A stretch of DNA of 64,000 bases from Clytia hemisphaerica (taxonomy: Eukaryota > Cnidaria > Hydrozoa > Leptothecata > Clytiidae), in the NCBI GenBank assembly GCA_902728285.1, contig CACVBU010001312.1, positions 1,302,001-1,366,000 of the forward strand, given 5' to 3'. The notes under the pieces were generated by a model, which was not told where the DNA came from, did not search any database, and saw nothing but the letters and a program-made list of their open reading frames with translations. A program made the translations under genes and the position numbers. Shown one piece after another: positions 18,555 to 63,172 of the stretch (positions within the stretch are counted from its first letter, which is position 1; each line of letters opens with the position of its first letter).

Positions 18555-21500
18555 TCATGAGGTTTTATCATCGCCTGTTGCTGGCTTCTCGACAGTGCTT
18601 GATGGAGTCGTTTCCGCTGGTTTAGCAGTTTCACCTTCAGCAGTGGGCGCTGTGGGAGTTTCTAAAAAGTTCGAAGCAATTATAAGTTTAAAACAAAAAC
18701 AAAACACTTACGTTTCATTGTCAGTCAATCGATGGAAAATCTATGATTTAAAAATGTCTTGTAGTTACATTTCTTGGTTTGAGCTATTTTCTAAAAGCAG
18801 ACTTTCTCCATTGATGTTTTGCCATAGTAATACTACGATCAAATCTCTCAGACGCCCATTCATAAATACAACTTGTTTGTTTACTTAGAAAACTCATTGT
18901 TGTTCAATTAAACAATGCCATGCCGAATAAACAGACGCTATTCGAGTATTTACTCATTGTCGGTCAACTTGCAAATAGTTACAAAATTTGAGGACGAAAA
19001 CTTGATAATGAATGATGAATCTTACCTGTTTTCTTGTCCTCAGCCTTAGGTTGTGCCTCAGGTGCGCTGAAAACCAAAGCAAATGATAAGTCAATTAACC
19101 TATCCACAAATATCAGATAGTAATAACAGAAAACTGTTAACGATGACAATCAGAAACGGCACGTGACCATAGCTGCCTTTCTGAATGGGTGTTGAACTTT
19201 TTAAAAACGTCCAAAAAACCTGAAAAGATTTTTCTATTATTTACTATTTGACCCAAAAGTTCTACAGAATAACCCACCCAAAAGAATATAGACGATCAAA
19301 TAATTTAATACCAGCCAGTCAGCCAGAATATAGAAACTTTAGGGAAGTAGGGAATAGAAGAGAAGTTAAATACTTTTTTCAAGCAAATACAGATAGACAG
19401 ACAAATATTACGTTTTCTTTATTTAAAAGGTATAGTAAAGTATTCTACCTCTTTTCTGGTGATTTATCAACATCCATCTTTTCAGGAGAAGTTACTGTTG
19501 TCTTTGCTTCCTCTGTGCTTGGTTTACTAAATAAACGAAAATGGAACATAATGATAGTTAGCATGACTTAAATAAACGCAATCTGATGTTCATGTGCCAT
19601 AATGAAATTAGACTAACAAGAAGGATTACCTTTCTTCAGTCGGAGAAGCTTTCTTATCTTCCGTAGTGTTCTCCTCTTTCTTTGGCCTAGAATTAATGAA
19701 AAAAAAAATTCAATGAAAAAAAAAAACGGTTTTTGGCTGAGAATCTAAAAAAATTGAACTTCCAAGTACAGTTGACTATCACCATGAATTTAATATAGAC
19801 ACTGACTTGATAAACAACAAGCTAGGTTTTCATTGATTCCTCATGATCTAGCCTTGTCCATAGTGGGCACCCACCCTCCCTTGAAAAAAGGGGGGGTTGA
19901 GAATTTTACTGAATTTAAAAGAAGGGGGTTTGTGGAAATTTCAAATAAAAGGGGTGGCTTGTACAAAAAGAGGGGAGGTAAATTGGAAGATTTGGCAATT
20001 TGCAAAAGAGTATTAATTCCATTCATTTTTAAATTTCTCAACAATCATAATATTTATAGTTAGAGATTGTAAGAGTTTGTGCGTAAAAGGTCGAAAAAAA
20101 AAGGGGGTTGAGAAATTTTAGTTTTTAAGAGGAGGTTGAGCTAAAAGAGGGGGTGCCATTTTTAAGGGGGGGGGGCTTGATACCCTTCTGCCCACTATGC
20201 TCTCCTTCCTTCATTAAAAATTATTTCGTAGCATTTTAATCACTTTTTTCATCAAAGCAAGGTCTTTCAATTCCCAAATGAGAATTAAAGTTTTCTTTAG
20301 AGAGGCAAACACATCAAAATAATCGCTAATTTATGTGTCGTTATGACGTTTCAAAAGACACAAAAAACATGCTATGCATGAGAAATTCAATGTTGATACC
20401 AGAAATTTTCAATTTTTAACCTCAACAAAGCTTCAGAGACACTAAATTCTGATATAATGTCAGACCTTTTCATAAATTACGTCACAAACATCACTTGCCT
20501 CGTTTTAAAATGATCGCCATGGTGATTAAGTCCCAGCGGATTTTATTAAAACTACTTCCTATTCACAAAAAAAATCATAGACATAATCACCACGGTAATT
20601 GTTTGAATACGAGGCAAGTGATGTTTGTGAGGTAATTTAAAAAGAGGTCTAGTCTATCTTAGCTCTAATCGGAAAATTGTTAGAAAGGTATTGCCCACTT
20701 AAAATTCAGTTATCACCACTTTAGGCCTTTCGTTTAATTTCTCTTGTCTAATGATGTTTTTGTCACAACAGATTCAATACATGTATCCGTTGATTTTTTT
20801 ATTTTTCAATTTTCGGCGAGTAAAAGATCAAGAAGATAAAGATAATTGACTTTTTAGAAATGTGATCATTTAATCATTTTTCAAAATCAGAGAATTTTGA
20901 GCCGCCAGGACAGTTGTCTTTTGCGGACACAGCTCGAATCACGATTGTTTTCTGAAACAATGGAAATACAATCATCGTTCTCCACCGTTTCATGCGTTGT
21001 TCATCCAGTGTCTATATTAAATTCATGCAAGATATTAGTAATTCGAATTCGAACGGGGAACCGTATTTTTCGAATTAGAGAGATTCGAATTATAGAAAGT
21101 ATTTTGAGAGTTTTTATCCTTGTCAGGAACTTTCGAAGTCAAGTTCGAACTATAGAAAGATTCGATTAATAGAAGTTCGGGGTTTAATGTAGCAAGATAA
21201 CATTATACAAAAAATTCAAAGATCCTTTAAAAAGTTAAATGTATGAGTAAATATGAACAAATAGATGGATTCTTACTCTTCAGTAGTAGTAACAACAGCA
21301 GCTGGCGTTTCTGATTTCGTTACCGGTTCCTCAGTGGTAGCTTTGGCGCCGTTTTGTGGTTTATCTGCAACAGGTACGGAAGCCGCTGGTGTAGTGGTAG
21401 GTTTAGCGTCGCTATTGAGTGTTTCTTCTTTCTTGGTGGCGTCAGTAACCATGTTTTGTATGGGGCTTGCCGTTCGTAGCTTCTTGCGTGGACTCTTATT

Positions 21501-24500
21501 GTGATTTTTCTCATCACGGCGTCCCTCACCTTCGTCTTCCGAATCAGAGTACTCACCGTCGTTCGCGATACGTTTGTCAGATGAACGAACTGTGACACGG
21601 AAAGAAAAGGGATTATTTAGTTGTTTTTTTTACTCCGTGTTTGGTATTCAGGCGATAGTTACAAGAGTAGAAATATAATCTCAACAATGCTTTATTGTGT
21701 AACAAGAGTTTTTATTAGCAAAACAATGGCAATATGGGAAAAGTCATGATTTTGGGCTAAGGTACTAAACAAGAAATTTTCTTGGTCACTATTGACCATC
21801 GGTCCTTTCCTTTTAGCGATCAAGATTGGGCATAACGCATCATTCTTGGACTAGAAAATGAGATTTCTCAGCTGACAGAGTTGATTTGCGGGGATAACCT
21901 ACTGGAGATTCTGTTATCAACGTTCTTTGGGTTATCGTCATCGTCGCTCTCCTCCGGTGCTCCGTCTTCTGGAATCGCTGTTGAAAAGAAAACTTAGTGG
22001 TAAAAGTTGCGCTGGGGATGTCGAGTGATGGATACTGGGAATATTCAGATATAATGGCCATTTATCACAAACCTTAACGTTTACCAGGGTCGGAAATATT
22101 CTATGCATCGGGCAGCAAAAGGCTTAAGGCTAAAAATGGGTTTTATTATTAACAAGTTCCTTGGAGTTGAAGCTACGAAAACTACTTACGAGCCATTTGT
22201 ACACCAGGTGCGTGTGGAATCATTCTCAAATTTTCGAATAACCTTGTTCTAAAGACAAAGGGGAAAGAGTTGAAAATAAACTTCTGATCATACAGTAAAA
22301 ATCGTATAGGTCTAATCATGTTGTCTTGGAGAAGAGTCCAATATCTCAAACTTAAGAGGATTTCCCCTACTCAACCCAAGACGTGAATGAGGTTAGAAAA
22401 TTTATGCTGATAACAGCTGATAAAGGAAACCCGGTCCGAAAAAGGAAACAAGCGAAACTGGAGTTTGTAATCGGCTGTGGCGTGAAACAAGCATTGAAGA
22501 CTTGCGCAAACAACTCGCCAAAATGAAAAAAATGAATGCAAGTATGCATAAAATCAAAAACACGCATAAGTTTTCGAGGAAAAACTTCACAATCAAACTC
22601 AAAAAGTGAGCGACTTGGAAGAGTAGCAGGTAGAAAGCGAGAAAAAGATTGTTGAAATGATATGGATGTCAAAGACAAGAAGAACGCGTAAACAAGATAA
22701 AGACATAAAGTGCCGAAATGTTCCAAGAATTGGACAATGCTGATCGTAAGATCCAATCTTTTAACTTAATCACACAAAAGTCGTTTATCAATAAGTCTAC
22801 AAAACTGCTGAAACGAAATCAGCTAAAAATACGGTGACCGTGTCCCAACAAACCAATCAGAATGTATGAAGATTTTAAATTGCTTTTCCTAACACAGTAA
22901 AATCCTTCTCAAGCTTAGAGAATTGGAGATGTTCCAACACAGTAATTCTCAACCTTGTATCTTCCCCAACTTTCGTAAACCAAGCAAAAGCCAACGGTTA
23001 TTCAAAAGCATCTGCGCATTGTTCAAGAACAACATCCTCTCCAGCGTTGAAACACACTGAATCGAGCGAGCGCTTGATTTGAGTTCGGGAAGAATATCTT
23101 ATGTCAGGTCAGTAGAAGCACCATCTAGATCCCTGCTACCGGGCAAGCTGTAACCTGGTACAACCTGTACAACTAAAGACGATAACACTTTTACGATTGA
23201 AATTTCCTTCCCAGTTAGTTTTCATTCTTTATAATGACTTACTTGATTTTGTCGAGATATTCGGGAGTGTTTTGATTTTGCATGTTGGAAGGTTGAATGT
23301 GGAGTTTAAAATCGGGACCGAAATATTCGAAATAGTCGTTGTAAGGTAATTCTGTAGTTAAAGAAAAAGGAAATTAGAAAAAAGATAAGATCCTGTAACA
23401 ACGGATAATGTTAAAGGATTCTAGATTTACAGGATTAACAAGGGCCTATTAAGAATAACACTATTTCACAACATCAGAGATCAGATGACCAAGCCAGTAT
23501 TGAGCTTAACTTGGCGGAGGCTTTTGAAATCCTATAGTACTGTAGTAACTTCAAATAGCAAAAAATCGATCAAAATTTGTCAACATGTTGCCACTTACCG
23601 TTTGGAATATCAACTTCTAATGCAACTGAGGTTTCATACGTCCAACATCGAGCAACATTACGAATGGTATATCCACCACCACCCAAAATCAACAGTGGCA
23701 AGTTGAATTTCTTAATAAAGTCGACACACTGTGCATGTCCTTTCAAAGAGAGATTGAAACAACCAAGACGATCACCAGACAAGGAGTCAGCACCACATTG
23801 TAGTACGACAGCATTTGGTTGGTACATCTCCATGACTTTGGTTAATACCTTGAAAATGATAAAGAAATCATTCTAATTATTGCATCGTACAAATTTTCCA
23901 TTTTCGAAAATATGATAAAAATTCAGAACGTCGAAAAATATATCCATACTGATCCATAGTACGGGAGGAGGTCACTATCCCCCAGCCTGGGGGCTTCTTT
24001 GATAGACTGGATGGCGCTGATAAGTAGCCCAGTGCACCTATTCGAGTTTTTAGCTTTGCTTGAGGTGGTAGCAAATCTTTATCACTAGATCCAGTCTCTT
24101 TTTGGTGAAAAACGAAGAGAAAAGTATGACCAAGGGATCGATTGTTTTCAAAGTTTGGAGGTATTTCAGCATTTTTATTATAGTTTCATAAATTTTGATG
24201 AGAATGAGGCCATATCTTTTGTATGGAAAGGGAAGATTGATCTAATTTCAGTACATACTGGGTTGAAAATCTTTTCATAAGCATCATCGTCAATACCATC
24301 ACGTAATGGGAAGTTCACAGCATAATATTTCCCCTTGCCAGCACCAATATCCTGTGAAAGCAAAAAGAGTTTACTTCGAAATCTTGGTTCATCATTTCAT
24401 TTGAAACTTTTAAACCACATTGAATTAGAACATGAGAAACTCATCATTAATATAAATTCTCGATAGGTGATTCTCAAAGCACTAAAATTCACTTTGTCTT

Positions 24501-27500
24501 TCAAAGAAGTCCAATCATTATAAAAACCTCCTCCAATGATATATTATTTCAGCTTTCTCATAAAATATTCTTTCCACATAAATAAAAGGAAAGTTAAAAT
24601 TTGATCCTTATACGAAATTTGGCTAATCCCAGGAGAGGGATTTGGTAACGTGATCAAATTTTAACTTACCTTTTAATTACGTGGAAAGAACATTTTACGA
24701 AAAGCTGAAAAAATACATAATTGGAGGAGGTTTTTATAAGTATGCAAAACAAATCAATTCATGTAAGCAATTTGTAACTGTTAAGAGTAGATAGAAACAA
24801 GCCCATTGATTTTAATATTGATTTATAATCAAACAGACCATAATCAAAATATGACTTACTCTAAGGTCACCAGTGCCAGGGAAGTATTCACCATATTTAT
24901 GGAAGGAGACCGTCATAACACGATCCGTTGTATAGAAAGCCTCTTCCACACCATCACCGTGGTGAATATCAATGTCAACGTACAGGACACGCTGATGGTA
25001 TTTCAACAATTCCAGAATTGCCAACACAATGTCATTGACATAACAAAAGCCAGAAGCTTCCGATTTCTTGGCGTGATGAAGACCACCTGCCCAATTGATG
25101 GCAACATCAGCTTGTTGTTTATTTAATTTCACAGCACCAGCTTTGAAAAAGAAAATGAATTAATTTTAGATGTATAGCAAATATATTAAGGGAATTGCAC
25201 CACTCTTATTTTATATCAGTTTGTATATACCATATAACATATTCTCTGACCTTTGAAGTTTATCCATTTATCCAGTCCAGACAAGTCATAATTTTTGAAA
25301 ACAAAATTAGTAATTAGATATTCTGCTATAATCGAATTCGAAATTTACTCCTTTAGAGTAAAGACAAAATCCCTGAAATAATGGTTCCAAGAATCACAAT
25401 GCAGTCTACTTACCAACAGAACCACCAGTTGAAATTTGGCAAAACTCGTAAAGACCATCAAATACTGGGCAATCTTCACCAACATTAACTATGAGAATAA
25501 TGGTAGAAAAAGAATATCATTCCTAATTCATTCACAAAGAAGTCAAAACCATCTGCTTCTTTTTCTGCTACTATACTCTTTTAAAAATAAATAATAACAG
25601 CCCTTCAAAGAAATTACAAGAAACTTGAAAACAAACATGTTAATTATTTGATGATTTGTAACTTACATCTCTGCATTTGCTTGTTATATTCTGAAGTATT
25701 TTCTGGTCTAATTGTTCGTAGAAATTTGATGTAATCATCAGAATGATATTTTGTCATTTCTTCAAAAGAAGCCTTGTGTGGTCTCTAAAGAGAAATCAAG
25801 AATGTGATTTCTCAACATAACAAGCGATACTACCGTTTATAAAACAAATAATAAAAGCTTAATGAAGGCGATGTAGAAACAAAAACTGAATAATTTAAAA
25901 TTTTGCAAGTTGGTGCCAAAATTTTTTTTATAAATATGAACTTTTTCATGTTTAGCACACTGTTAATTAGGAACAACAAATGAACAGATTATTTAAGTCC
26001 AAAAAACCCTATTTTTAGGCATTTTTGGGCCCAAATTAGCCCAAAATTTTTTTTTCAAAAATTGGGCTCCATCACATTTTAGTATTCACCATTTTGCACC
26101 TTTGTACCAAAAATCACAAAATCCCTATGATTCAATCCCGAGAAAAGTTGGTAACAGACGAACAGACGAACACAGGTTTTAATTTATAGAACCTCCAGGT
26201 AGGTCCAAAAAACACGAGTGTTAAACTATTTTTTATATAGGTAATGAAGTACTTAATGCAAAGAGAGTTACTGCTAGCTGCTTTTCTAGGCCATGAGCTG
26301 CAAATACAGTGAGCGAATTTTTAGTTTCATGAAACCTTTGACACAGGATAGAAAAATACTCAAATACTTACGTAGATTTCCATCTTTCTATAAAGTCCAT
26401 AGTTCAAAAGTAAATTGTGTGTCATGCGAATACGGTGAGGTTTCATTGGATGGCCTTGTCCGTAATAATAGTTTCCAACATCACCTGCAAGAAATAAAAC
26501 TTTTCTTCAATGAAAGTAAAATAATCACTGGGTGACCAAAAAAACTCACCCAGCTGGCTGGCTTTCGATCCCAAAACTCAGTTTTTTGAAGCACTCATAG
26601 AATTGACTTAAAATTGAAGTAATTTAACGCCAGTACTTATTTAAGAAGCTCAATCAACAAACCCAAGTTCTACCTTTTTGGTAGAAAAACTTTTGAGGTA
26701 AAAACATGTATATACAAAAACAACAAGCAACATGCTGAAAGGACCTACCTGATGACGAGAATCAGATAAAGATAGGACAACTAGCAAGAGAATAAAAAAC
26801 TGTAGTGAGCAGCTTGAATAGATTATCGTGAGTATCACAGCTCAAATTAATATCAACAGTCTGTGAAGTATAGTTAAAGTCGTATGACTTATAGTCGTAG
26901 ATACTGGGGTGAATGAATATTTTATTGTATTGATGATAAAAGGTGATCTTCCCCAAAGTCCAAAAAACCCATGTTAGGCTCATTTTCCCTAAATATAGCA
27001 AAAAGGAATTTCCCCAAATAAAAAAATTCGATTTTTACAACCAAAAAAAAAATTCCGAAAAAAACTGCTTAAGCCTCTTCTTAGAGAACCTTGCCCTCTA
27101 TTTTTATGCAAAAAATCAGAAAAAACTCCATTTTTAGTGACTTTTTGGCCCAAATTTGCCCCCAATTTTTTTTTTAGAAAATTGGACGCCGTCACTTTTT
27201 GGGAATCACCATTTTGCATCACTGTGCAAAAAATCAGAAAAAACTAATTAGCCAATCCTGAGAAAAGCTGGTAACAGACGAGCGGATGAACGAACATCAG
27301 TTAATTTAAAGGACCTCTGTGGTAGGTCCAAAACACGGTTCAACGGGTGTGGGGTCAGAGATGAGCAAACAGGAGTCAATGAAGGTAGGCGGAAGCCGTG
27401 TTCGTAACGGTTAACACTGTAAAGTGCATTGGATATGTTCAAACTGAAATAGAAAATTGAACAAAAACTAAGTCCTAATGTATATATGAAAATAAAGTAA

Positions 27501-30500: not shown

Positions 30501-33500
30501 CTTCTGAGGTTATCTGGAAGGACGTCATCCCAATCCATCTTTCTTTTGACCAGATCGTGGAGGTCCAACTTCATGGTTGCTACAATTGGAGTGATAAGTC
30601 CGGTGATGTCATATAACTCTGCAACTTTGGCAACACATTGACGTCGAGTTAGATCCTTTGGGATTGTAGATTGCAGTGTTGGTTTTCGCCCTCGTGACTT
30701 CTTGGCAAAGTTGAGCTGTTGTACATCGAGTGAGATTTCGTCTTCATGAGGGAACCATCTAAGTCCAGCCACTGATACTGTTTCTCCATCATTTGATAGT
30801 GATTCTTGTGGTCTTTGTCCAGAGAAAGTGAACCCTTTTAGACTGAAACCACCATGACTGATGACAACTTCAAGATTGTCTGCCAGTTTGTGGGCCAAGT
30901 TGACTGTTGGTGCTCCTGATAGGCAATCATCGACATACACATCGTTTGAAACTATTTGATGGATTTGTGGATACTCCTCTTTGAACAGTCGTGCAGTTTC
31001 CCTCAATCCTCTTTCTGCTTGATTGCCACTTGATTTGATACCATATATGAGGGTTTTGATCACTTTTTCTTCTGGTGGCTTTGTAGAGTCGAGCTGATCT
31101 TGCCAAAGGTAACGCTGAAGACCCCAGTGGCTTGGATGTAGTTTGATTGAATTGTACATTTTTTGAACATCTGTGTGGAAAACCACGGAGTGACACCTCC
31201 ACCGCACGAAGATGTCAACAAGACGGTTCATGTTATTCCTTCCCTTGGCGAGAAGGTCATTGAGCGAAAATCCAGAGTTGGTGGTCATGGATGCATCGAA
31301 TACCACCCGACATGGTGTTGATACTGATGATTCTTTCCAAACGGCGCGCCATGGGATGTAATTTTGTAGATTTGATTGCGCCAATGACTGTTGCATTTCC
31401 TTCGGGAGGTTTTTGACATAGTCGACGTAGCCAAGTTTTTGGAGTTTGTGTTCGGAGTTAATGATGTCATCTTTGTCATCAGGGTTTTTGACGAGTCTGT
31501 GAAGCTGTTGATTATACACTTTGAGAGCAATGCCTCGATTTGGAGATAATCTGCTTGGACTGTCCATGAGTGGAAGAGTAGCAATTGACTGGTGGTTTTG
31601 TATGTCCACTGTGACGGAATCATCTATGAATTGTTGTTCAGTTTCTTCTTTGATGCTCATGATCTCGTTGGTGAGGTTTTTGCATTTGGCACATCCTCTG
31701 CAACTGACGCAACGAAAAGTTTGTTCACTTCCAGCACGTTCTGCTTCGTTGAAGGTGTTGATTGTTCATCATCAAAATGATTACTCTTACTGTTGAAGAC
31801 GTCACCAATTTGTGATAGATAACCGAGTAAACGAATGTCTGGATTAACGTCATACCCATTGTGAAAAAGACGAAGTTGGTTTGATACAAAGTGTGTTGAT
31901 AAGTGTGCTGCACCAATCCTGTTGAAGACCTCATGAGGTCCCCCGATGATGCCAAATGAACCATCTGTGTTGACGAACTGTGATCTGTATATGGTAAGTC
32001 CGGATGGTAGTTGAAAGACAGGTTCTGGAAAATAGCGATTGTACTTCATCCCAATCATGAAATCTACATCACCTCCGATTGATTTAGGAACGCTAGGAAG
32101 GAATTGAATATTGTTACCTTCCTTGATGTAGCAATCTTTGATGTCATCGTAAACTTTTCCCTGTAGTGGATATTGTGGAAAGGTTTCAGTGATACGATCC
32201 ATACATGGGCCAATCATCACGGCTTGTGATCCATGGCTGAGTGGAATTGATATTTTGTAGATACCACGTCTTGATACATTCTTTGAGCCACCAACACCAT
32301 TCATTTCGACTTCGTATGATGAGTGTTTGACAGCGTTGGGTCCCAGGTGTCTGACTGCTTCGAAGCGACTGACAAAGTCACTGCAGCCAGTGTCGTAGAA
32401 GATCGTGTACGTTCGCTTGTTGATGCAGATTGACTGTAGCATAAAGATAGCATTGTTTGAGTCATCCACTTGTTGATGATGATTTGATTTGAATGTACTA
32501 TGATAAATCCTGATGTCCTTTGAATAGGTTGGTAGTGGATGTTTTCGGATGCAAACGTCCTTGTAGTGTTCCAGGATGTCCTTGTTGACTTGTTCCAGCT
32601 TGTGTTCGTCGCAGACAAGGATATGCTTCTTGATCTTTTCATTAGCGTGTGACGGATGTTGACAAATAAATCTGTGTTGACATCTCCCTTCATTGTGTTT
32701 GCCTGTGCTGATCTTCGCTCCAGGGTAGAGGCATTGATGGCACAGGCTGTTGTCTTTGAGGAACTTCAGACGTTGGTCGGCTGTCATGTCTACGAACGTC
32801 TTACACGAGAAGTATTGGATCAGCTTGGTGTTCTTCGGGCCATTGGTCGGAACGTGATCATTGGCACCACAAATGAAGCATGTTGACAATGATGGTTGTT
32901 GAGGTGGTGTTGGTTGTCTTGGTTGTTGACCAAAGTAGGATGATCCTCTTCCTTTCTGCCTTCCATCTTTATCCTTGTCTTTCCCAGGGGTGGTGCCAAC
33001 ATTTGAGTGAAGGATGGTAACTTGTTGTTGGATTTTGATCTCCTTCTCCAAAAAGTCGATCATGAGCTTCCATTTATATTTTCCCTCTCTCGGATTGTCA
33101 CAGCTGTATGTAAGCCATCTCATCAGTCTGCTTTGGCCCAACTTGTTTGAGAGGTGTGTAAGTGCGTCCCCATAGTATAATTCATTCTCGATGTGATGCG
33201 TTGAGGCTAGAAGCATCAAATCTCGCATGGTATTGACGATTTTGCTGAGCGATTCTGTGATCTTGGTTGAGTCTTTAACCTTCATATCAATGGATGTGAG
33301 GGTTGCGAGCTTTTGCGAAAGTAGTAGCTTTCGGTCTCCAAAGGCGTCCTTGAGTCGAAGCCAGATTTCATCGATGTCGTTTACGTTCTTAACAAGTTCA
33401 AACGCATGTTTTCCAAGGTGATTGTTTTTCACAAAGTCTGGTTGTAAGGATGTTGGTACGTGATCAGAATAAAGTTTTTTGAAGTTGTCAATGAATGTGT

Positions 33501-36500
33501 AAATATCAATCTCAGCTTCGTAACCAATGAATTTGGGCAATTTGATATTTAGTTGAACCTTTTTGAAAGAGTCAAGTTTATCAAGTTCTCGAGATTTCAT
33601 TTCATCGTTTATGGTCTTTTCATACTGTTGAGCAGATTTGTGAAGTGTATCGTAGTTTGTCTTGATTGGACCATAGACTGCTGCACTGGTGTTGAGTTCA
33701 ATCAGTTCCTTTAGGTTTTCTGAGATAGTGCTAACTTCTGACATGCGTGATTGTAGTTGCTTTTTGCGTAATTTCAAGTCATCATTTGTAACAGTTGTGA
33801 TGGTGACGGTAAAGACTTTGGTGAGATATTCTATTGCCCGTGTAGCTTCTTCAGCGATAAAGGTTGATTTTTGAGAATTGACAGATTGAGTCTCTTTGGT
33901 AGTGGTAAGATCAATATCTTGAATTTGTTTCTGAATAATTTGGACATAGGTAGCAACCTCATTAATTGTTGAAGAGTATGGCTTACCATATTTTTGTTCG
34001 TAGTTTTCCAGAGAGTCTTGATGGTCTTGGAGTAAGAAACGTAGCTCTCTATCTTTATCTCTGTACTTCTTGCGGAGCGCCTGGATGTCAGTGATGCAAC
34101 GTTTCATGACATCAGTCGATTGTTTGATTAGAGGTGGAGCAAAGTCTTGAATGATGTCAAGGATTTCATCTTGATAGCCAATGAGCGAGAACAACAATGC
34201 TTTAACTTCTGGTTTACCGTCCATTTGGATGACTTGGTCGGACGACGGTTGAAGTTGGTCGGACGACGGTTGAAGTTGGTCGGACGACAGTTGAAGTTGG
34301 TCGGACGACGGTTGAAGTTGATCGGATGACAAGTGAGTTGAGTCGGACGACAATTGATTTGAGTCGGACGACAATTGATTCGAGTCGGACGACAAGTGAG
34401 TTAAGCCGGACGACAATTGATTCGAGTCGGACGATAAGTGAGTTGAGTCGGACGACAAGTGAGTTGAGTCGGACGATAAGTGAGTTGAGTCGGACGACAA
34501 GTGAGTTGAGTCGGACGACAAGTGAGTTGAGTCGGACGACAAGTGAGTTGAGTCGGACGACAAGTGAGTTGAGTCGGACGACAAGTGAGTTGAGTCGGAC
34601 GACAAGTGAGTTGAGTCGGACGACAAGTGAGTTGAGTCGGACGACAAGTGAGTTGAGTCAGACAACAAGTGAGTTGAGTCGGACGACAAGTGAGTTGAGT
34701 CGGACGACAAGTGAGTTGAGTCGGACGACAAGTGAGTTGAGTCGGACGACAAATGAGTTGTATCACTTACGGTTGAGTTGAGTTGAGTCTTATTCCCAGT
34801 GTTTCCATAAGTCTTGAAGTTGAAACGATTTTTCGGTCTCAAGTTATAACTCATCTACCAAACAGCGGTTGGTCGGTGAATGTTGATTGAACAGTGCGTG
34901 ATGTGGTGATGCATCAGTTTATGTTGAAACGGTTGATAGCGGCTCTGTTTGAATGTGGGGTCAGAGATGAGCAAACAGGAGTCAATGAAGGTAGGCGGAA
35001 GCCGTGTTCGTAACGGTTAACACTGTAAAGTGCATTGGATATGTTCAAACTGAAATAGAAAATTGAACAAAAACTAAGTCCTAATGTATATATGAAAATA
35101 AAGTAAAATTGAAGTTTGAATGACAAAGTTCTATGTGTAAGCTAAGTATAATTGAATACTAGTAGAAAAATAAGTAATGAAAAATGTATCTTAAACCTAA
35201 TAGCCACTGTAAGAAAGCAAAAGGCAAAGGAAGGGAAAGCAAAAAGAGAAAAACTCACCAGCTGGCCTGAATGTGAAAGCTGTGTAGGCAGCATGTACAC
35301 AGGGTGTGTTAGACTAACACCAAGTGTATTAAAAGTGACTAAGTTTGTATTGATAAGAGACTAATTTGATGTTGACTCCTTGAATGTCTCTGTTGAAGTG
35401 AGGCAAGTGGCTGAAATGACCTCTATTTATGCATTCTGCAGAACAGATGCATAAATTACAGACCAAAAATTAATTTGACAAAAAATGAAATAAATTAGTG
35501 AAAATGCAAAGTAGATATTGAATTGACATAAATTAATGAATAAAATACTGACCAATCATATAAATTTCACAAAACTAAAGAAAAATACCAAAAGTGGTAG
35601 AAAAGTGTGTAAATTGCAGACCAAACTGAAAAATGTAAGCAAACATGACAAAAACAAATGAAGACACAGAAAATGACACTGTGAAAAATGGTGGGAGTGT
35701 GATTTGGGACTCTGAGATTTTGAGAACTTAAGGTTGCCTGCCTTAACAACGGGTTTGGTAGACTTCACTCCAAGTGGTTCTTTTCTCAATTCAAAATTGA
35801 CAATGTTTACATTCCTCTAACCTTCCACAGTACTAGAGTGCACATTTTTATCTACTGCCTTTGTTGCGGAGCACCATGGAGATAGCGAGACTCCTAAACG
35901 GTGTATTCAAAAAGTGCTTTCCTACAGATTGTTGATGATTACTGTGGGTTAGTACCGTTCCTTAAAAATATCAAACTCTTTACTTTGGATGTAAAAAATA
36001 ATTTTTATGAGATCTGTTCTATAATTTCTGAAGGATAGGTAAAAGTTCTTGAGTCTATTTGCACAGAAAATACATTATATCAGTGCTTTTGGTGTACTCT
36101 GCTTTTTGGCAATCTCCTATTTTTCCATTTTAAGAATAGTGTATTCCCTTGTATGTATTAAAGAAGTAATCTCCTTTATTATTTAACTTGATCACTGCTT
36201 TTAAAATATTATCCATTTCTGGTCTTATAATAGTCCGACGGCGATCCAGGATCACCCTTACAATTACTAAATATGGGTTTTTATTTTATTTTCCCATCAT
36301 ATGGTCCCTTGGGACCCCAAAACCGGTTTTTGCCAAGCTGGCAAAGCTGGGGAAAATTTTTTATGGGGGCTTGAAGGGGGTAGGGTCATTTTAGCCTGGG
36401 GGTCCTTAGAAAGTCGATTTTTGAAGTTCTCATTTAGCTAAAAACTGATTGTGCCATCAGATAGAGCTTGAAGAGTGGATCTCCAAAATGGGGTCATTTA

Positions 36501-39500: not shown

Positions 39501-42087
39501 ATTGGAGAAAAAGGGGAATTTTTCGACCCAATTCTCCAAAATCAAGAAATTTTGCCATTCCATTTTTCCAAAATCTGAATTTTTTTTCAGAAGATCAGAA
39601 AATTTTTGGAAATGCGGGAGATTCAGGAGAAAATCCTGAAAATGTGAGAAAATTGGCTGAATTTTTTTCAATCGGTCGATCGATTCCATTCGATTGAGAT
39701 CGTCTGGCTATTTCCCGGTAATTTCGCCAGACCTCAAACACTGACCCATTTACATGTGCTGAATTAGGGCTATTCCAAAAAAAAATTGTACAGGGGTATT
39801 GACAAACTTTTTTTACTAACCTCCCTGGAAATTTTGGATAACAAACTATCCCCTGGAAATTAGGAGTCGACACCCTTGGAATGTTAAATTTTGTGAAAAA
39901 GGGCCTGGAAAGTGACTATTGATGCCAGTTTAGGAGGAGAGAACCCCCTGGAAACCTTTAATAATCCCCTTGGAAAATCTGAAAATGACCAAAAGCCCCT
40001 TGGAAAATCAAGGCTCAGTCCCCCCTGGAAAAGTTCATCAATACCCCTGTATGGTTTAAAAATGGAATAGCCCAATCTTACTTTAGCGTTTAAACAAGGC
40101 CTTCAAAATCGAAGCGCTGTCTTGGGAATAAAATGACAAAATTTGGTTGTTTGATGCTGCACTTTCGCAATCGGTCATTTTGTCTCATTTTAAGTTTCAA
40201 GTTTCAATTATTGTCTTGGGAACTTGAACTTGATTCTGGTAACTCTCATCCTTGTTGTTGCAAATACATCCTGTAGATGACTGATGTTGTTTTTTCTGAA
40301 AGCTTGATTTCTTAGTGTGACTAGAGTACCCTGCCCAGTTGGCGACCGAAATCTTTTGATTCAAATTTTTCACTTACTTCTTACTTTTTTGAAAATCCTT
40401 TTCGACCAACGGTTAGACAACTTTTAACATGCTCTTCGTGTTTGTTTTGATTTTTTATTTGAGGCGATCTTCTTAGAATAAAAAACTTTCGGGTACTAGT
40501 GCCCAGTTCCCGACCGACGTACCAGTCTGCGACCGATCGCGAGAAAGAAAAAATCAGTGCTCTACTTGCAGGTAAGGTTGTATTAATTAGGGTGGACAGG
40601 TCAAAATTTTCCCCTCAAATTTTGAAAACCAAACTAATTTTATTTGAAAGTCCTTACCTTTGTGAGAAAAATGAGGGGTCATTTGTTAAAATTGGTTAAG
40701 TAGTTCCAAAGTTATTCCATTTTCAAACCACAAAAAAAACACATTTTCAAGGAATCGTCTCCCTACCACGCGCAACCAAGAAGTGACCTTTGGACAGCAC
40801 CGAAAAACATTAAAGATGGCGGGTGAATTCTAGCCTTCCGCGTGGCGGGGCGTGAGGAGTTTTCCTGACGCGGTCTGAAAATCGGCCCGATGACTGTTAA
40901 ACTTTAGCTTATCGAAAATGAGCTGGAAATAATAGCTAAAAACAAATTTCACCACTAGAAAGCTAAAATCCTCAGCTTTCAGATGGTGTATGCTGCTTAA
41001 ATGAAAAAATCCGCAATCTTGTTAAAAAATCGCAATTTCTTCTTGTTTTTCAAAATTCCAGACAGCCTGTAGATTTTCAAACAAAGCAGGTTGTGATAGA
41101 TTGTAGCCTAATCTTACCCTGGGTTTACTAAAAAAACCGCGATTGAAAAGATGAACCAGCTCAATTTCGACAGCCATTTGTTTCAATGTGGGTCGAGAAT
41201 TTTCCGGTGCCGTGGTCAGCGCTAAATCGCGTTTTCACCTTGACGTCGAAAAACATGAATATCTTTGGAAAGAAAAAAGATACTTGGATGCAGTTTTTTT
41301 TACTTGTTTCCCTGATAATTCCTGATTGATTTAAAAAAAGAATGAACAGATTTGGATGATTTAAAGGTAAGTACTAATGCATTGAAGTTCATTTTTGTAA
41401 ATTCTTCCTCGTTCCGCGCAAAAAATCCCGACGAGTGCGCACCCTATATTAATTGATCAGGATGATAAAAAAACTCATAAGCTTTCCCGTATTACATTTA
41501 TTTACACTCGTTCTTTTGTTTTAAAATAGCTCACACGCGTCTGGAATTTTTTAATCGCAATGTAGAGTCTTCTTTTTCATTTTTTGAGTTTGGTCGGTCG
41601 CATCGCAGACTGGACGTCAAATTTCGAAGCTGATTGCGTCAACTTTTTTATCAATATTTCAAACGAAAAAAACTGTATCAAGCTGATTTTTACAGAAATG
41701 CTTTCTAACATATTCATCGTTTTGGACAAGTATTTTTTGGAGTGGGAGTTGAAGCGTTTTTTCTTACGAAGCTTTTTTGTCCACAGGTAGCCATTTTTTA
41801 TTTTTTTCGAAAAATACGGTACGGGAAATAGGTCAAGGCAGATTACTACCAAAAGAAATTCTCCAGAGGTTTGTTTTTGTATGACTTTTCTGCGTTCAAA
41901 GACGTTCGGTCGCCAACTGGACCGGTCGCCAACTGGGCAGGGGACTCTAACTGCCAGAAAAATACCAGATGTGCTTCTGTCTAAAAAGTGGAAGCCTTGG
42001 CTAAAACTATTAAGGTAAAAAGTACAATCTCTTACCATCATAATAGTAACAAATTTTCTTTTTGCTTCCTCCACTTGTGTAAGCCAT
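18555..42087 (-). CDS. HDAC1: class I histone deacetylase (HDAC1/2 type)
   Basis: Zinc-dependent lysine deacetylase, expected catalytic subunit of nuclear Sin3, NuRD and CoREST complexes. Exons 5' to 3': 42036-42087, 26372-26484, 25667-25784, 25414-25488, 24860-25140, 24259-24351, 23599-23848, 23243-23351, 22190-22248, 21903-21977, 21277-21589, 19630-19686, 19449-19526, 19026-19066, 18555-18661. They join in phase to 606 residues. Exon 1 encodes a start Met and [10 protein letters not shown], which continues into [17 protein letters not shown] in exon 2. Visible active-site elements are [36 protein letters not shown] and [10 protein letters not shown]. After [12 protein letters not shown] the tail is Lys/Glu/Thr/Pro-rich and spread over short exons; at 606 residues the protein is longer than the roughly 480-490 of vertebrate HDAC1/2. 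Intron 1 is 15.5 kb and holds a BEL retrotransposon in sense orientation. The start lies 355 bp from the divergent KAT8 start. Confidence 0.95.
19859..20199. mobile_element. G-rich inverted-repeat element in an HDAC intron
   Basis: The ends CATAGTGGGCA (19859-19869) and TGCCCACTATG (20189-20199) are perfect 11-bp inverted repeats. Between them are at least six blocks of GGGGTTGAG/GGGGGTTTG-like sequence on the plus strand, ending with a 10-base G run. Short ORFs inside are repeat artefacts. It sits between HDAC exons 11 and 12. Confidence 0.55.
20473..20639. repeat. foldback MITE in an HDAC intron
   Basis: The left arm TAAATTACGTCACAAACATC through ACTTGCCTCGT is mirrored at the right end (ACGAGGCAAGTGATGTTTGT then GAGGTAATTTA), with the inner ATGGTGATTA also mirrored by TAATCACCACGG. 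The whole element could form one long hairpin. No coding capacity. Confidence 0.7.
21030..21185. repeat. CGAATTATAGA-type repeat fragment
   Basis: Several short CGAATT/CGAACT boxes followed by ATAGA or AGAGA (for example GATTCGAATTATAGAAAG) occur on the plus strand. Similar boxes are at about 16.60-16.65 kb inside a pogo-like element and, inverted, at 63.92-64.00 kb. This is probably a terminus or relic of the same element type. Confidence 0.4.
24519..24738. repeat. foldback MITE in an HDAC intron
   Basis: Two arms of about 95 bp, the left starting TATAAAAACCTCCTCCAAT, are inverted copies of each other and end with ATTGGAGGAGGTTTTTATA. The loop is about 30 bp. The element lies in the intron between HDAC exons 5 and 6 and encodes nothing. 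Confidence 0.8.
26741..27330. mobile_element. repeat element with GGACCTACC termini
   Basis: It starts GGACCTACCTG and ends GTGGTAGGTCC. The right part carries CAGAAAAAACT, a CTGGTAACAGACGAGCGG block and GGACCTCTGTGGTAGGTCC, which also occur (diverged) at 26.1-26.2 kb and, inverted, at 44.5-44.6 kb. It belongs to the same family as the outer element at 44513-53581. The BEL retrotransposon inserted 17 bp beyond its right end. Confidence 0.55.
27348..28142 (-). repeat. 3' LTR of the BEL element
   Basis: This 795-bp direct repeat of 34954-35748 has TG...CA ends. Differences seen include 27733-27735 (TGA versus TTA in the other copy), ACCAAACAT versus ACCAATCAT and GTAAACAAAC versus GTAAGCAAAC. 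The near identity points to a recent insertion. Confidence 0.93.
28214..31660 (-). CDS. pol: BEL/Pao Pol: reverse transcriptase, RNase H, integrase
   Basis: 1148 residues, intact. The N-terminal third carries the reverse transcriptase with the catalytic YVDD box ([12 protein letters not shown]) after [17 protein letters not shown] Pao-type RNase H region follows ([35 protein letters not shown]). The C-terminal third has an HHCC integrase zinc domain ([11 protein letters not shown] ... CPRCRY) and a DDE core ([20 protein letters not shown]), ending in an integrase C-terminal region with GDIVLFTK. The ATG overlaps the stop of the upstream ORF as ATGA, so translation may depend on termination-reinitiation or on -1 frameshifting. 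It probably replicates the element by reverse transcription and integration. Confidence 0.93.
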   Translation of the reverse strand: MSIKEETEQQFIDDSVTVDIQNHQSIATLPLMDSPSRLSPNRGIALKVYNQQLHRLVKNPDDKDDIINSEHKLQKLGYVDYVKNLPKEMQQSLAQSNLQNYIPWRAVWKESSVSTPCRVVFDASMTTNSGFSLNDLLAKGRNNMNRLVDIFVRWRCHSVVFHTDVQKMYNSIKLHPSHWGLQRYLWQDQLDSTKPPEEKVIKTLIYGIKSSGNQAERGLRETARLFKEEYPQIHQIVSNDVYVDDCLSGAPTVNLAHKLADNLEVVISHGGFSLKGFTFSGQRPQESLSNDGETVSVAGLRWFPHEDEISLDVQQLNFAKKSRGRKPTLQSTIPKDLTRRQCVAKVAELYDITGLITPIVATMKLDLHDLVKRKMDWDDVLPDNLRSLWINHFEMMDEIKKVRFKRAIIPDDAANLDIQTLEFGDASKYLVCIAIYVRFQRKNGLHSCQLIFGRSKLISQEYTQPRAELFASMINAHSGHTIKQALKDKHKSSIKFTDSQITLYWISNDNLNLKQWTRNRVSEIHRFTDINEWKYLKSEDMIADLGTRRCESIKEIDQNSHWIQGYPWMNQDASTFPSQSVQEISLNAQEKQLMKKESRDDDRKEVINCFISSTKLTLPEAISDRYKLSCYLLDPNFKRFHTVIRIMGYVIKYINALRKKFTATSKINPLNQLPSLTDEDMSNSRQYFFKKATQEVKHFNDRSKFKKISEEKDGILYFTGRILPTDQISTLGKATSTMKDLTASTFCVPLVDKNSPLAYSIIMDIHWNHPTALHSGVETTWRYVLQQCYILEGRSLVKMVRSSCPRCRYLLKRKFNVIMGPLSEDNLKIAPAFYTTMTDLAGPFLSYSQHHKRTTVKIWLVVFCCATTTSTKIKVMDNYDTLAFLQAFTRLACEVGYPKKLLVDEGSQLIKACETMELNLVDIQQHLHSKLNIEFATCPVGGHNVHGRVERKISEIKKSIEKSINKERLSILHWETLASTISNTINNLPLAVGNHKHFEMSDLLTPNRLLLGRNNERSPTEPLSVSNDYDKIIRTNKKIYDTWFECWLTAHVPNLMSQPKWFNNDTDIKTGDIVLFTKQESSLASTYQFGRIQNVNNGRDGKICEVDVEYVNNNEKTKRVTHRSVCSLILIHGIDEIDITSQLYGLKN
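31657..34854 (-). CDS. gag: BEL/Pao Gag-protease polyprotein with heptad repeat
   Basis: 1065 residues. Residues 1-31 are followed by about 25 copies of a seven-residue unit (mostly STHLSSD, later QLQPSSD) to about residue 206. Next comes a coiled-coil-rich Gag region of the BEL type ([20 protein letters not shown], about residues 430-620), Cys/His clusters (CFICGANDH and CHQCLYPGA), and a retropepsin-like aspartic protease with [12 protein letters not shown]. It ends four bases into the next ORF (ATGA). A repeat-extended Gag N-terminus is not a usual BEL feature. It supplies the particle protein and processing enzyme of the retrotransposon. Confidence 0.92.
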   Translation of the reverse strand: MSYNLRPKNRFNFKTYGNTGNKTQLNSTVSDTTHLSSDSTHLSSDSTHLSSDSTHLSSDSTHLLSDSTHLSSDSTHLSSDSTHLSSDSTHLSSDSTHLSSDSTHLSSDSTHLSSDSTHLSSDSTHLSSDSTHLSSDSTHLSSDSNQLSSGLTHLSSDSNQLSSDSNQLSSDSTHLSSDQLQPSSDQLQLSSDQLQPSSDQLQPSSDQVIQMDGKPEVKALLFSLIGYQDEILDIIQDFAPPLIKQSTDVMKRCITDIQALRKKYRDKDRELRFLLQDHQDSLENYEQKYGKPYSSTINEVATYVQIIQKQIQDIDLTTTKETQSVNSQKSTFIAEEATRAIEYLTKVFTVTITTVTNDDLKLRKKQLQSRMSEVSTISENLKELIELNTSAAVYGPIKTNYDTLHKSAQQYEKTINDEMKSRELDKLDSFKKVQLNIKLPKFIGYEAEIDIYTFIDNFKKLYSDHVPTSLQPDFVKNNHLGKHAFELVKNVNDIDEIWLRLKDAFGDRKLLLSQKLATLTSIDMKVKDSTKITESLSKIVNTMRDLMLLASTHHIENELYYGDALTHLSNKLGQSRLMRWLTYSCDNPREGKYKWKLMIDFLEKEIKIQQQVTILHSNVGTTPGKDKDKDGRQKGRGSSYFGQQPRQPTPPQQPSLSTCFICGANDHVPTNGPKNTKLIQYFSCKTFVDMTADQRLKFLKDNSLCHQCLYPGAKISTGKHNEGRCQHRFICQHPSHANEKIKKHILVCDEHKLEQVNKDILEHYKDVCIRKHPLPTYSKDIRIYHSTFKSNHHQQVDDSNNAIFMLQSICINKRTYTIFYDTGCSDFVSRFEAVRHLGPNAVKHSSYEVEMNGVGGSKNVSRRGIYKISIPLSHGSQAVMIGPCMDRITETFPQYPLQGKVYDDIKDCYIKEGNNIQFLPSVPKSIGGDVDFMIGMKYNRYFPEPVFQLPSGLTIYRSQFVNTDGSFGIIGGPHEVFNRIGAAHLSTHFVSNQLRLFHNGYDVNPDIRLLGYLSQIGDVFNSKSNHFDDEQSTPSTKQNVLEVNKLFVASVAEDVPNAKTSPTRS
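34237..34761 (-). repeat. 21-bp in-frame tandem repeat in BEL gag
   Basis: About 25 units of 21 bp (plus-strand unit AGTCGGACGACAAGTGAGTTG and variants) encode a Ser/Thr/His/Asp heptad. Because the unit length is a multiple of three and has no stop in several frames, long spurious ORFs appear on both strands here. The array grades from highly uniform STHLSSD units to diverged QLQPSSD units. Confidence 0.95.
34954..35748 (-). repeat. 5' LTR of the BEL element
   Basis: This 795-bp repeat lies upstream of gag on the minus strand and should carry the element's promoter and poly(A) site. It is followed on the right by the ACGGG target duplication. Nearly identical to 27348-28142. Confidence 0.93.
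36231..37537. mobile_element. 1.3-kb foldback element with a second inner hairpin
   Basis: The left end TAGTCCGACGGCG and right end CGCCGCCGGACTA open inverted arms of about 150-190 bp (GGGTTTTTATTTTATTTTC, TTGGGACCCCAAAACCGG and CCAGCTTTGCCAGCTTGGC are mirrored). Inside, 37187-37385 forms an independent hairpin with arms of about 80 bp around ATCATGAGATATTAGAGTTT. No coding capacity. It lies in HDAC intron 1. Confidence 0.8.
38006..38912. mobile_element. TA-flanked MITE, family with CCGTCAACTGCTCTAA termini (907-bp copy)
   Basis: The ends CCGTCAACTGCTCTAA and TTAGAGCAGTTGACGG are perfect inverted repeats flanked by TA (38004-38005 and 38913-38914). Internal sequence (GATTGGTCAAAACATGGGAC, CAAATCAAATGACTTTGGAG) is shared with the shorter copy at 39097-39434. 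It contains a 3.6-unit tandem GCTCGCATACC repeat at 38451-38490. Confidence 0.85.
39097..39434. mobile_element. TA-flanked MITE, family with CCGTCAACTGCTCTAA termini (338-bp copy)
   Basis: It starts CCGTCAACTGCTCTAA and ends with diverged TAGAACAGTTGACAG, flanked by TA (39095-39096 and 39435-39436). Relative to 38006-38912 it keeps both terminal regions and lacks the middle, as expected of an internally deleted sibling. Confidence 0.8.
39767..40073. mobile_element. MITE with GGGCTATTCCA termini and internal CCCCTGGAAA boxes
   Basis: The ends GGGCTATTCCA and TGGAATAGCCC are inverted repeats; the next block TACAGGGGTATTGA is also mirrored at the right. About eight variants of CCCCTGGAAA lie between. 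The flanks (ACACTGACCCATTTACATGT on the left) match an unfilled copy of the host repeat at about 58.43-58.56 kb, which lacks this insert. Confidence 0.75.
40324..41947. mobile_element. TA-flanked inverted-repeat element, split by a nested transposon
   Basis: The left end GAGTACCCTGCCCAGTTGGC (continuing GACCG) is mirrored by CGGTC GCCAACTGGGCAGGGGACTC at the right, each bordered by TA (40322-40323 and 41948-41949). The middle is interrupted by the element at 40589-41456. Its right edge is 89 bp from HDAC exon 1. No intact transposase is visible. Confidence 0.75.
40589..41456 (+). mobile_element. 868-bp DNA transposon copy with 8-bp target duplication (left of promoter)
   Basis: It begins AGGGTGGACAGG and ends GTGCGCACCCTA. 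TATTAATT flanks both sides (40581-40588 and 41457-41464), an 8-bp target duplication as seen with hAT-type elements. Sequence matches 43038-43895 in reverse orientation along its length. It is non-coding. Confidence 0.85.
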
Positions 42088-42442
42088 TGTTAGGATTTAT
42101 TTACGAGGTAATTTCAGAAAGTTGCTGGATTCTGCTAGTTGAAATCGTGTTTTTGTGAGCTTTTTTTACCGCTTCGCGTCTTGAGTATAAAGGATTTTAA
42201 TTGATCCGTGGTCAAACTACAAATAGCTCGAATTTGTTATTTGAAACTTTTTCAACTTTTGTAAGTCTGACCACGAATTAGGATCAATAAAGATCAATAT
42301 TTTCTGCCTAGTACCAACATCTCGGTTTTCCTTTTTGAGGACGCCGCTAAAAATCTTTTTTCCATTCCCATAGAAAAACGTAACCGCTTAAACTGACAGT
42401 TAGGAAAGCTTATACTACACGCAGGATTACAAACAAGACAAG
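42088..42442. promoter_or_regulatory. shared bidirectional promoter of HDAC1 and KAT8
   Basis: These 355 bp separate the two divergent start codons, so both 5' UTRs and core promoters must fit here unless non-coding upstream exons exist. No TATA box is evident at a convincing place. CAAGATGGCGGC over the KAT8 start (about 42439-42450) matches the YY1 consensus found at many animal housekeeping starts. An imperfect dyad (TTGATCCGTGGTC near 42200 and GACCACGAATTAGGATCAA near 42270) lies in the middle. Shared regulation is an inference from spacing. Confidence 0.75.

Positions 42443-63172
<20,730 letters not shown>

What the first reader, a model, noticed from the sequence alone, without database searches (positions are those of the whole stretch)
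42036..42644. Histone deacetylase and histone acetyltransferase genes head to head, 355 bp apart
HDAC exon 1 (minus, ATG at 42085-42087) and KAT8 exon 1 (plus, ATG at 42443) diverge from one short spacer. Exon identity is firm: each tiny first exon splices in phase to its distant remainder ([10 protein letters not shown] to DVGNYYYGQ for HDAC). The two enzymes have opposite activities on histone lysine acetylation, so a common promoter could keep writer and eraser levels balanced. I know of no described conserved pairing of these two genes.
Basis: partly seen in the sequence, partly recalled or inferred. Interest (0 to 1): 0.85.

Follow-up and report, generated by a model that had tools for sequence, protein, structure and literature searches.

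The report
Head-to-head HDAC1/2 and KAT8 genes
In what is very probably a jellyfish genome, the gene for a main histone deacetylase and the gene for a histone acetyltransferase start back to back, 355 bases apart, so they may share a promoter; such head-to-head pairs are common, but this pairing of opposite enzymes is unusual and easy to test.

Summary
HDAC1/2 (minus, 15 coding exons, ATG 42085-42087) and KAT8 (plus, 9 coding exons, ATG 42443) diverge from a 355-bp spacer (42088-42442). Both exon-1/exon-2 joins, across introns of 15.5 and 16.5 kb, occur in transcript-derived proteins. The genome is very probably Clytia hemisphaerica. Of 8 HDAC-domain loci found, this is the only HDAC1/2.

Not shown: a shared promoter, co-expression, or balancing of writer and eraser. 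No TSS data were available, and a strong splice-acceptor-like site 69 bp upstream of the KAT8 ATG leaves its cap site open.

Best reading: an authentic divergently paired gene unit with a compact promoter region, a common genomic kind with an unusual pairing. Selection for balance is possible but untested. The spacer also holds a hairpin-forming inverted repeat of uncertain significance.

The parts
42088..42442 (.). 355-bp intergenic spacer, candidate shared (bidirectional) promoter region
   Evidence: GC 0.355, CpG o/e 1.25 against 0.79 (SD 0.38) for 180 window tiles; 1 match in own genome
42036..42087 (-). HDAC1/2 coding exon 1 ([18 protein letters not shown]...)
   Evidence: join to exon 2 present in P0121
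26372..26484 (-). HDAC1/2 coding exon 2 (after a 15.5-kb intron)
21277..25784 (-). HDAC1/2 coding exons 3-11: 25667-25784, 25414-25488, 24860-25140, 24259-24351, 23599-23848, 23243-23351, 22190-22248, 21903-21977, 21277-21589
   Evidence: GT-AG exons; PF00850 on the first 327 residues
18540..19686 (-). HDAC1/2 coding exons 12-15: 19630-19686, 19449-19526, 19026-19066, and the last exon starting at 18661; the low end given is a search boundary, the stop lies just above it
   Evidence: fit to transcript protein P0121 under a GT-AG constraint, 603 of 606 residues identical
42443..42644 (+). KAT8 coding exon 1 ([10 protein letters not shown]...KKTDGEW)
   Evidence: join to exon 2 present in P0001
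59195..63172 (+). KAT8 coding exons 2-9: 59195-59266, 59603-59769, 60098-60316, 60607-60696, 60982-61122, 61953-62046, 62355-62505, 62959-63172
   Evidence: GT-AG exons, 449-aa open frame; Tudor-knot, zf-MYST, MOZ_SAS
42439..42450 (+). CAAGATGGCGGC, YY1-type motif overlapping the KAT8 ATG (consensus recalled)
   Evidence: AANATGGCGGC occurs 2,996 times in the genome against 433 for the pattern read backwards, but several sampled copies share a repeat context and the motif ATG does not favour long ORFs in 30 sampled loci
42358..42374 (+). Strong 3' splice-site-like sequence, first base after AG at 42374, in the KAT8 leader (possible spliced-leader or 5' UTR intron acceptor)
   Evidence: score 10.7, equal to the best leave-one-out score among the 18 acceptors of the two gene models; AGs scoring 10 or more occur 0.31 per kb per strand in the window
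42193..42295 (.). Imperfect inverted repeat in the middle of the spacer, hairpin-forming on either strand
   Evidence: fold z -5.2 (+) and -6.3 (-), 0 of 200 shuffles each, in a chosen register; unregistered scan z -3.5; alignment tests disagree
40589..41446 (+). 858-bp transposon-like element copy 1, in HDAC intron 1, flanked by 8-bp direct repeats TATTAATT
43038..43895 (-). 858-bp element copy 2, opposite orientation, in KAT8 intron 1, flanked by 8-bp direct repeats ACTAAAGT
   Evidence: 92% identical to copy 1 over 855 aligned bases

Best explanation
This is an authentic divergently paired gene unit: the genome's HDAC1/2 gene and its KAT8 (MOF) gene start back to back. Shown: first coding exons, splicing, identities, 355-bp spacing, single-copy spacer. 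Inferred: transcription of both genes starts in the spacer or within a few hundred bases of it, from back-to-back core promoters in one open-chromatin region, as in ordinary bidirectional housekeeping promoters, giving broad and correlated expression. The pairing probably arose by rearrangement within the cnidarian or hydrozoan lineage and need not have been selected for writer-eraser balance.
For: Gene models with consensus splice sites. Transcript-derived proteins carrying both exon-1/exon-2 joins. In-frame stops just upstream of both ATGs. Spacer CpG o/e 1.25 against a mean of 0.79, about 1.2 SD and so weak. Single-copy spacer. Two copies of one transposon family sit on either side of the 1.6-kb core 41447-43037, none inside it. 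Base rate: 31.6% of fly genes are divergently paired (PMC2670823, abstract passage), more than 10% of human protein-coding genes (PMC3552671, abstract start in a search listing), and 11,379 head-to-head sponge genes have TSSs within 1 kb (PMC4773876, passages).
Against: No cap-site, chromatin or expression data were available. The strong acceptor-like sequence at 42374 allows the KAT8 promoter to lie farther upstream. No core promoter element stands out: the YY1-type motif is partly repeat-borne here and not ORF-linked in 30 sampled loci. The CpG excess is within chance.
Confidence: 0.62

Rival explanations
1. Chance neighbours with separate control. The genes are close, but at least one (more likely KAT8) starts elsewhere: its leader is trans-spliced or has a 5' UTR intron with acceptor at 42374 and a donor such as 42107 or 42260, so its promoter may overlap HDAC exon 1 or be distinct. 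No shared regulation.
For: Acceptor score 10.7 at 42374; plus-strand donor candidates at 42107 (7.3) and 42260 (6.3). Spliced-leader addition is known in hydrozoans (PMC11067881, passages; Hydra in PMC3273482, passages).
Against: Acceptor-like sequences of score 8 or more occur about once per kb per strand, so this may be chance. A KAT8 5' exon ending at 42107 would still lie within tens of bases of HDAC exon 1, leaving the promoters overlapping.
Confidence: 0.27
2. Selected writer-eraser coupling: one shared promoter is kept because it fixes the ratio of HDAC1/2 to KAT8, so that global acetylation is buffered.
For: Opposite activities by family (established knowledge). In flies, divergently paired genes are more alike in function than random pairs (PMC2670823, passages). 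KAT8 and HDAC1 report the same 86,977,266-bp contig length in Hydra.
Against: In 11 of 12 comparable species the genes are on contigs of different length. At least 8 HDAC-domain loci and 4 contigs with MYST matches exist in this genome. KAT8's main target H4K16 and HDAC1/2's broad targets only partly overlap (recalled). No expression evidence.
Confidence: 0.09
3. Assembly error joining two unrelated loci at the spacer.
For: None found; the two inverted transposon copies flanking the unit are the sort of repeat that can mislead assembly.
Against: The copies are 92% identical and each is flanked by its own 8-bp direct repeats, as expected of intact separate insertions; no reads were available to test the join.
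Confidence: 0.02

Closest known systems
Divergently paired genes / bidirectional promoters of animals (e.g. PMC2670823, PMC4773876)
   Same: Two protein-coding genes on opposite strands, start codons under 1 kb apart, short single-copy intergenic region.
   Different: Transcription starts are not mapped here; the pair joins an acetylation writer and eraser, for which the listings of my searches show no described case.
PREPL-C2ORF34 bidirectional pair driven by NRF-2 and YY1 (PMC2713978, title and abstract start in a search listing)
   Same: Head-to-head pair; a YY1-type motif is present here too.
   Different: Here the YY1-type motif sits only at the KAT8 ATG and is not shown to act.
Hydractinia Hdac2, the hydrozoan HDAC1/2 studied with SoxB2 in neurogenesis and regeneration (PMC8141815 and PMC6067865, passages)
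   Same: Probable orthologue: a Hydractinia echinata histone deacetylase entry (P0130) is 84% identical over the whole provisional query.
   Different: The passages seen do not describe its genomic neighbour or promoter.

Membership tests
HDAC1/2 (class I histone deacetylase) | Complete Hist_deacetyl domain | tested here: met
   PF00850, 303 bits, profile 1-296 of 298
HDAC1/2 (class I histone deacetylase) | Closer to HDAC1/2 than to other HDAC classes | tested here: met
   Listed hits whose names give a class say HDAC1 or HDAC2; others say only histone deacetylase or hypothetical (best 120 of 7,993). The other 7 HDAC-domain loci are at most 59% identical to it; L004 matches HDAC8 best, L005 HDAC3 best. 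No tree was built
KAT8 (MOF), MYST family | Tudor-knot/chromo barrel + MYST zinc finger + MOZ_SAS domain, in that order | tested here: met
   PF11717 at 55-106, PF17772 at 169-223, PF01853 at 228-405
KAT8 (MOF), MYST family | KAT8 rather than KAT5/6/7 | tested here: met
   Solved chains: best KAT8 631 bits; best KAT7 353, HTATIP (KAT5) 344, KAT6A 329. Listed hits whose names give a class say KAT8 or males-absent on the first (best 120 of 7,861)
Divergently paired genes | Adjacent genes on opposite strands, heads together | tested here: met
Divergently paired genes | TSSs less than 1 kb apart | tested here: inconclusive
   Start codons 355 bp apart; TSSs not mapped; possible leader splicing at 42374
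Bidirectional promoter | One region drives both genes; correlated expression | not testable with these tools
   no RNA-seq, cap-site or reporter data
Conserved gene pair | Same adjacency in related genomes | tested here: inconclusive
   Contig-length comparison only: same length in 1 of 12 species (Hydra vulgaris), different in 11; hydrozoan adjacency itself not readable here

The most novel reading that the evidence does not exclude
The spacer is a selected acetylation homeostat of hydrozoans. A near-symmetric promoter, with the inverted repeat at 42193-42295 presenting the same module to each gene, drives HDAC1/2 and KAT8 together; both products act on the chromatin of their own promoter, so the writer-to-eraser ratio stays fixed while the level adjusts.
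Probability: 0.05. Interest if true: 0.75.

Novelty: new member of a known kind. Interest (0 to 1): 0.4.

Why it matters
If both genes really share one promoter and are co-expressed, a laboratory jellyfish would offer a natural test of whether physical linkage of an acetylation writer and eraser buffers global histone acetylation. If not, it is one more divergent pair, useful as a caution against reading regulation from adjacency.

Tried and rejected
1. Retrocopies as evidence of the spliced 5' end: none of the other 7 HDAC-domain loci is a copy of this gene. Against P0121 they are 26-27% (L001-L003), 41% (L004), 59% and 47% (L005, two pieces), 28% (L006) and 38-49% (L008, two short pieces) identical. 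No help.

2. YY1-type motif as a start-site mark: AANATGGCGGC is 6.9-fold more frequent than the same pattern read backwards (2,996 against 433), but in 30 sampled loci the motif ATG opens frames hardly longer than 2,783 other ATGs (median 14.5 against 12 codons; 30 codons or more in 5 of 30 against 20%), and several copies share a repeat context. I do not use it as evidence of a start site.

3. Dyad symmetry of the spacer: significance depends on scoring. 584 of 2000 shuffles and 54 of 180 window tiles reach the observed score with loose gaps; 348, 24 and 2938 of 3000 shuffles, and 29, 11 and 174 of 180 tiles, with three other settings. The hairpin fold is strong in a chosen register but only z -3.5 in an unregistered scan, in which 13 of 1727 windows, in 9 places elsewhere, reach -4.5 or lower. 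Rfam gives no match at gathering score and only sub-threshold hits. Kept as a note and as part of the boldest reading only.

4. Core promoter elements: no TATAWAW, CCAAT, NRF1, GC-box, ETS, CRE, DRE, E-box or TCT consensus on either strand of 42000-42500; nine initiator-like matches, not tested against chance. One TATAAAG stands on the plus strand at 42186-42192 (by eye), also not tested against chance.

5. Conserved adjacency by DNA: no eukaryote relatives are held in the genome tools. I used the longest-contig column of the protein searches instead. Limits: it describes a 90%-identity cluster; in 3 of the 12 species (Diadema, Lingula, Scylla) a cluster has more than one contig; and the two rows of a species may come from different assemblies (likely for Channa and possible for Scylla and Pocillopora, judging by the style of the names), in which case a difference says nothing. 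I read the species by eye from the 120 listed rows of each of the three searches. Thirteen named species stood in both; Saccoglossus was dropped because its KAT8 row gives no contig.

6. Flanking genes (L048-L052) as a macrosynteny control for Hydra: no clean short orthologue was seen by eye; not pursued.

7. The copy number of the 858-bp element, the stricter motif CAAGATGGCGGC and a genome search with KAT8 exon 1 did not complete by the genome machine.

8. In one search the donor set (19) wrongly included the end of the provisional last HDAC exon, later replaced; acceptor scores are unaffected.

Full report
Source. The window is G000:C898:1302001-1366000 of a 417-Mb, 951-contig genome. The KAT8 protein read from it matches, at 448 of 449 residues, a protein whose source name is TCONS_00052684. 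TCONS identifiers are used for Clytia hemisphaerica transcripts of the MARIMBA database (PMC9525680, one passage), so the species is very probably Clytia hemisphaerica. This rests on identifier style and near identity; no record names the genome.

The two genes. HDAC1/2 lies on the minus strand in 15 coding exons from 42087 down to about 18,550. Its 14 introns have GT-AG ends, the last four fitted under that constraint. The protein, 606 aa, agrees at 603 of 606 aligned residues with P0121 (608 aa), which comes from a 1,947-bp contig. KAT8 lies on the plus strand in 9 coding exons, 42443-63172, 449 aa, all 8 introns GT-AG, with Tudor-knot, zf-MYST and MOZ_SAS domains and KAT8 as best solved relative. 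A 2,209-bp contig from an unnamed source (P0002, 92% identical over 90% of the query) carries the matching exon-1/exon-2 join.

Copy number. The genome shows 13 HDAC-domain matches in 8 loci and 12 MYST-domain matches on 4 contigs (the tool calls such counts lower bounds). Of the 8 HDAC loci only the window's is HDAC1/2: the others are 26-59% identical to it over their matched pieces, L004 is closest to HDAC8 (348 bits against 317 for HDAC2), L005 to HDAC3 (468 against 416 for HDAC1), and L001-L003 and L006 look HDAC6/10-like by eye. L008 is not classified. The other three MYST contigs were not classified. The spacer is single copy at the sensitivity.

The spacer. 355 bp, GC 0.355 like the window, CpG o/e 1.25 against a mean of 0.79 (SD 0.38) in 180 tiles: in the direction expected of a promoter, but weak. 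The KAT8 ATG lies in CAAGATGGCGGC, a YY1-type motif (consensus recalled; over-representation of YY1 motifs just downstream of human starts is described in PMC8384218, passages). The motif's genome-wide excess (2,996 against 433) is partly repeat-borne, and in 30 sampled loci it does not mark open frames, so I give it no weight. A splice-acceptor-like sequence at 42374 scores as high as the best real acceptor of these genes. Hydrozoans add spliced leaders (PMC11067881, passages), so the mature KAT8 5' end may be trans-spliced there, and then cDNA 5' ends would not mark its promoter.

Inverted repeat. An imperfect inverted repeat at 42193-42295 folds as a hairpin on both strands (z -5.2 and -6.3, 0 of 200 shuffles each). 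The register was chosen after seeing it; an unregistered scan gives -3.5 there, while 9 places elsewhere in the window reach -4.5 or lower, and alignment tests disagree. It may be a symmetric protein-binding region, an unrecorded small-RNA hairpin, or chance.

Flanks. The unit is flanked, in the first introns, by two 858-bp copies of one transposon-like element in opposite orientation, 92% identical over 855 aligned bases, each with its own 8-bp direct repeats (TATTAATT, ACTAAAGT), hence probably two independent insertions. No copy lies in the 1.6 kb between them, which fits constraint on the promoter and first exons, but two insertions prove little. Larger retroelement-like frames (by eye) sit in each first intron.

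Is the pairing conserved? The genome tools hold no eukaryote relatives. As a proxy I compared the longest-contig value reported for KAT8 and HDAC1/2 in the 12 named species present in both listings with a value in each (Saccoglossus, a thirteenth, lacks one). Hydra vulgaris gives 86,977,266 for both. The other 11 differ: Pocillopora damicornis, Glandiceps talaboti, Diadema antillarum, Macrobrachium nipponense, Lineus longissimus, Acanthaster planci, Scylla paramamosain, Asterias amurensis, Lingula anatina, Salvelinus fontinalis, Channa argus. The rows of Diadema, Scylla and Lingula involve clusters with more than one contig, and those of Channa, Scylla and Pocillopora may mix assemblies, so they are weaker; Glandiceps, Macrobrachium, Lineus, Asterias and Salvelinus, with contigs of 15 to 101 Mb, are the strongest. 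With 15 chromosome pairs reported for hydrozoans including Hydra (PMC11067881, passage), sharing a chromosome by chance is roughly 1 in 15, and the same paper reports macrosynteny extending across several cnidarians, so this is only compatible with an old hydrozoan linkage.

Interpretation. Divergent pairs are common: 31.6% of fly genes (PMC2670823, abstract passage), more than 10% of human genes (PMC3552671, abstract start in listing). A 355-bp head-to-head spacing is therefore ordinary; the identity of the partners is the unusual part, and it was noticed after the fact among very many possible meaningful pairs. I judge a promoter region lying between the two genes likely, selection for writer-eraser balance unlikely but cheap to test. 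Paper searches whose listings show no described HDAC/HAT head-to-head pair: 7 papers; 3; 6; 21 found, 12 listed; I saw titles and abstract starts, plus passages of PMC2670823. In one search a title reports that YY1 promotes HDAC1 expression in hepatocellular carcinoma cells (PMC5522268, listing only).

Searches were added to classify the other HDAC loci; the upstream KAT8 stop was recounted (14th codon); limits of the contig-length comparison were added.

Noticed in passing
window 42193-42295: Imperfect inverted repeat in the spacer that folds as a hairpin on both strands (z -5.2 and -6.3 in a chosen register); no Rfam family at gathering score.
   Followed up: partly
window 40589-41446 and 43038-43895: Two 858-bp copies of one transposon-like element in opposite orientation with different 8-bp flanking repeats, one in each first intron, flanking the head-to-head unit; recombination between them would swap the two first exons.
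   Followed up: partly
window 45675-47099: Near-perfect palindrome (656-nt arms, 99% complementary, 113-nt centre) in KAT8 intron 1; an exon-like reading frame in one arm has no Pfam match at E 0.1.
   Followed up: partly
window 28214-34854 (minus) and 47775-52043 (minus): Long retroelement-like frames (BEL/Pao-like and Copia-like by eye, no family search) in the first introns of HDAC and KAT8; the first has a THLSSDS repeat array near its start.
   Followed up: no
window 42358-42374: Strong splice-acceptor-like sequence 69 bp upstream of the KAT8 ATG; possible spliced-leader addition site.
   Followed up: partly
L002/L003 (G000:C129:1650599-1653496): Two HDAC6/10-like frames (by eye) in tandem, each in one long open frame; another similar at L001.
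   Followed up: no
L017-L046 (G000): AANATGGCGGC is 6.9-fold commoner in the genome than the same pattern read backwards; several sampled copies share the context AAATCGAAATTCAAAATGGCGGC, suggesting a dispersed repeat.
   Followed up: partly
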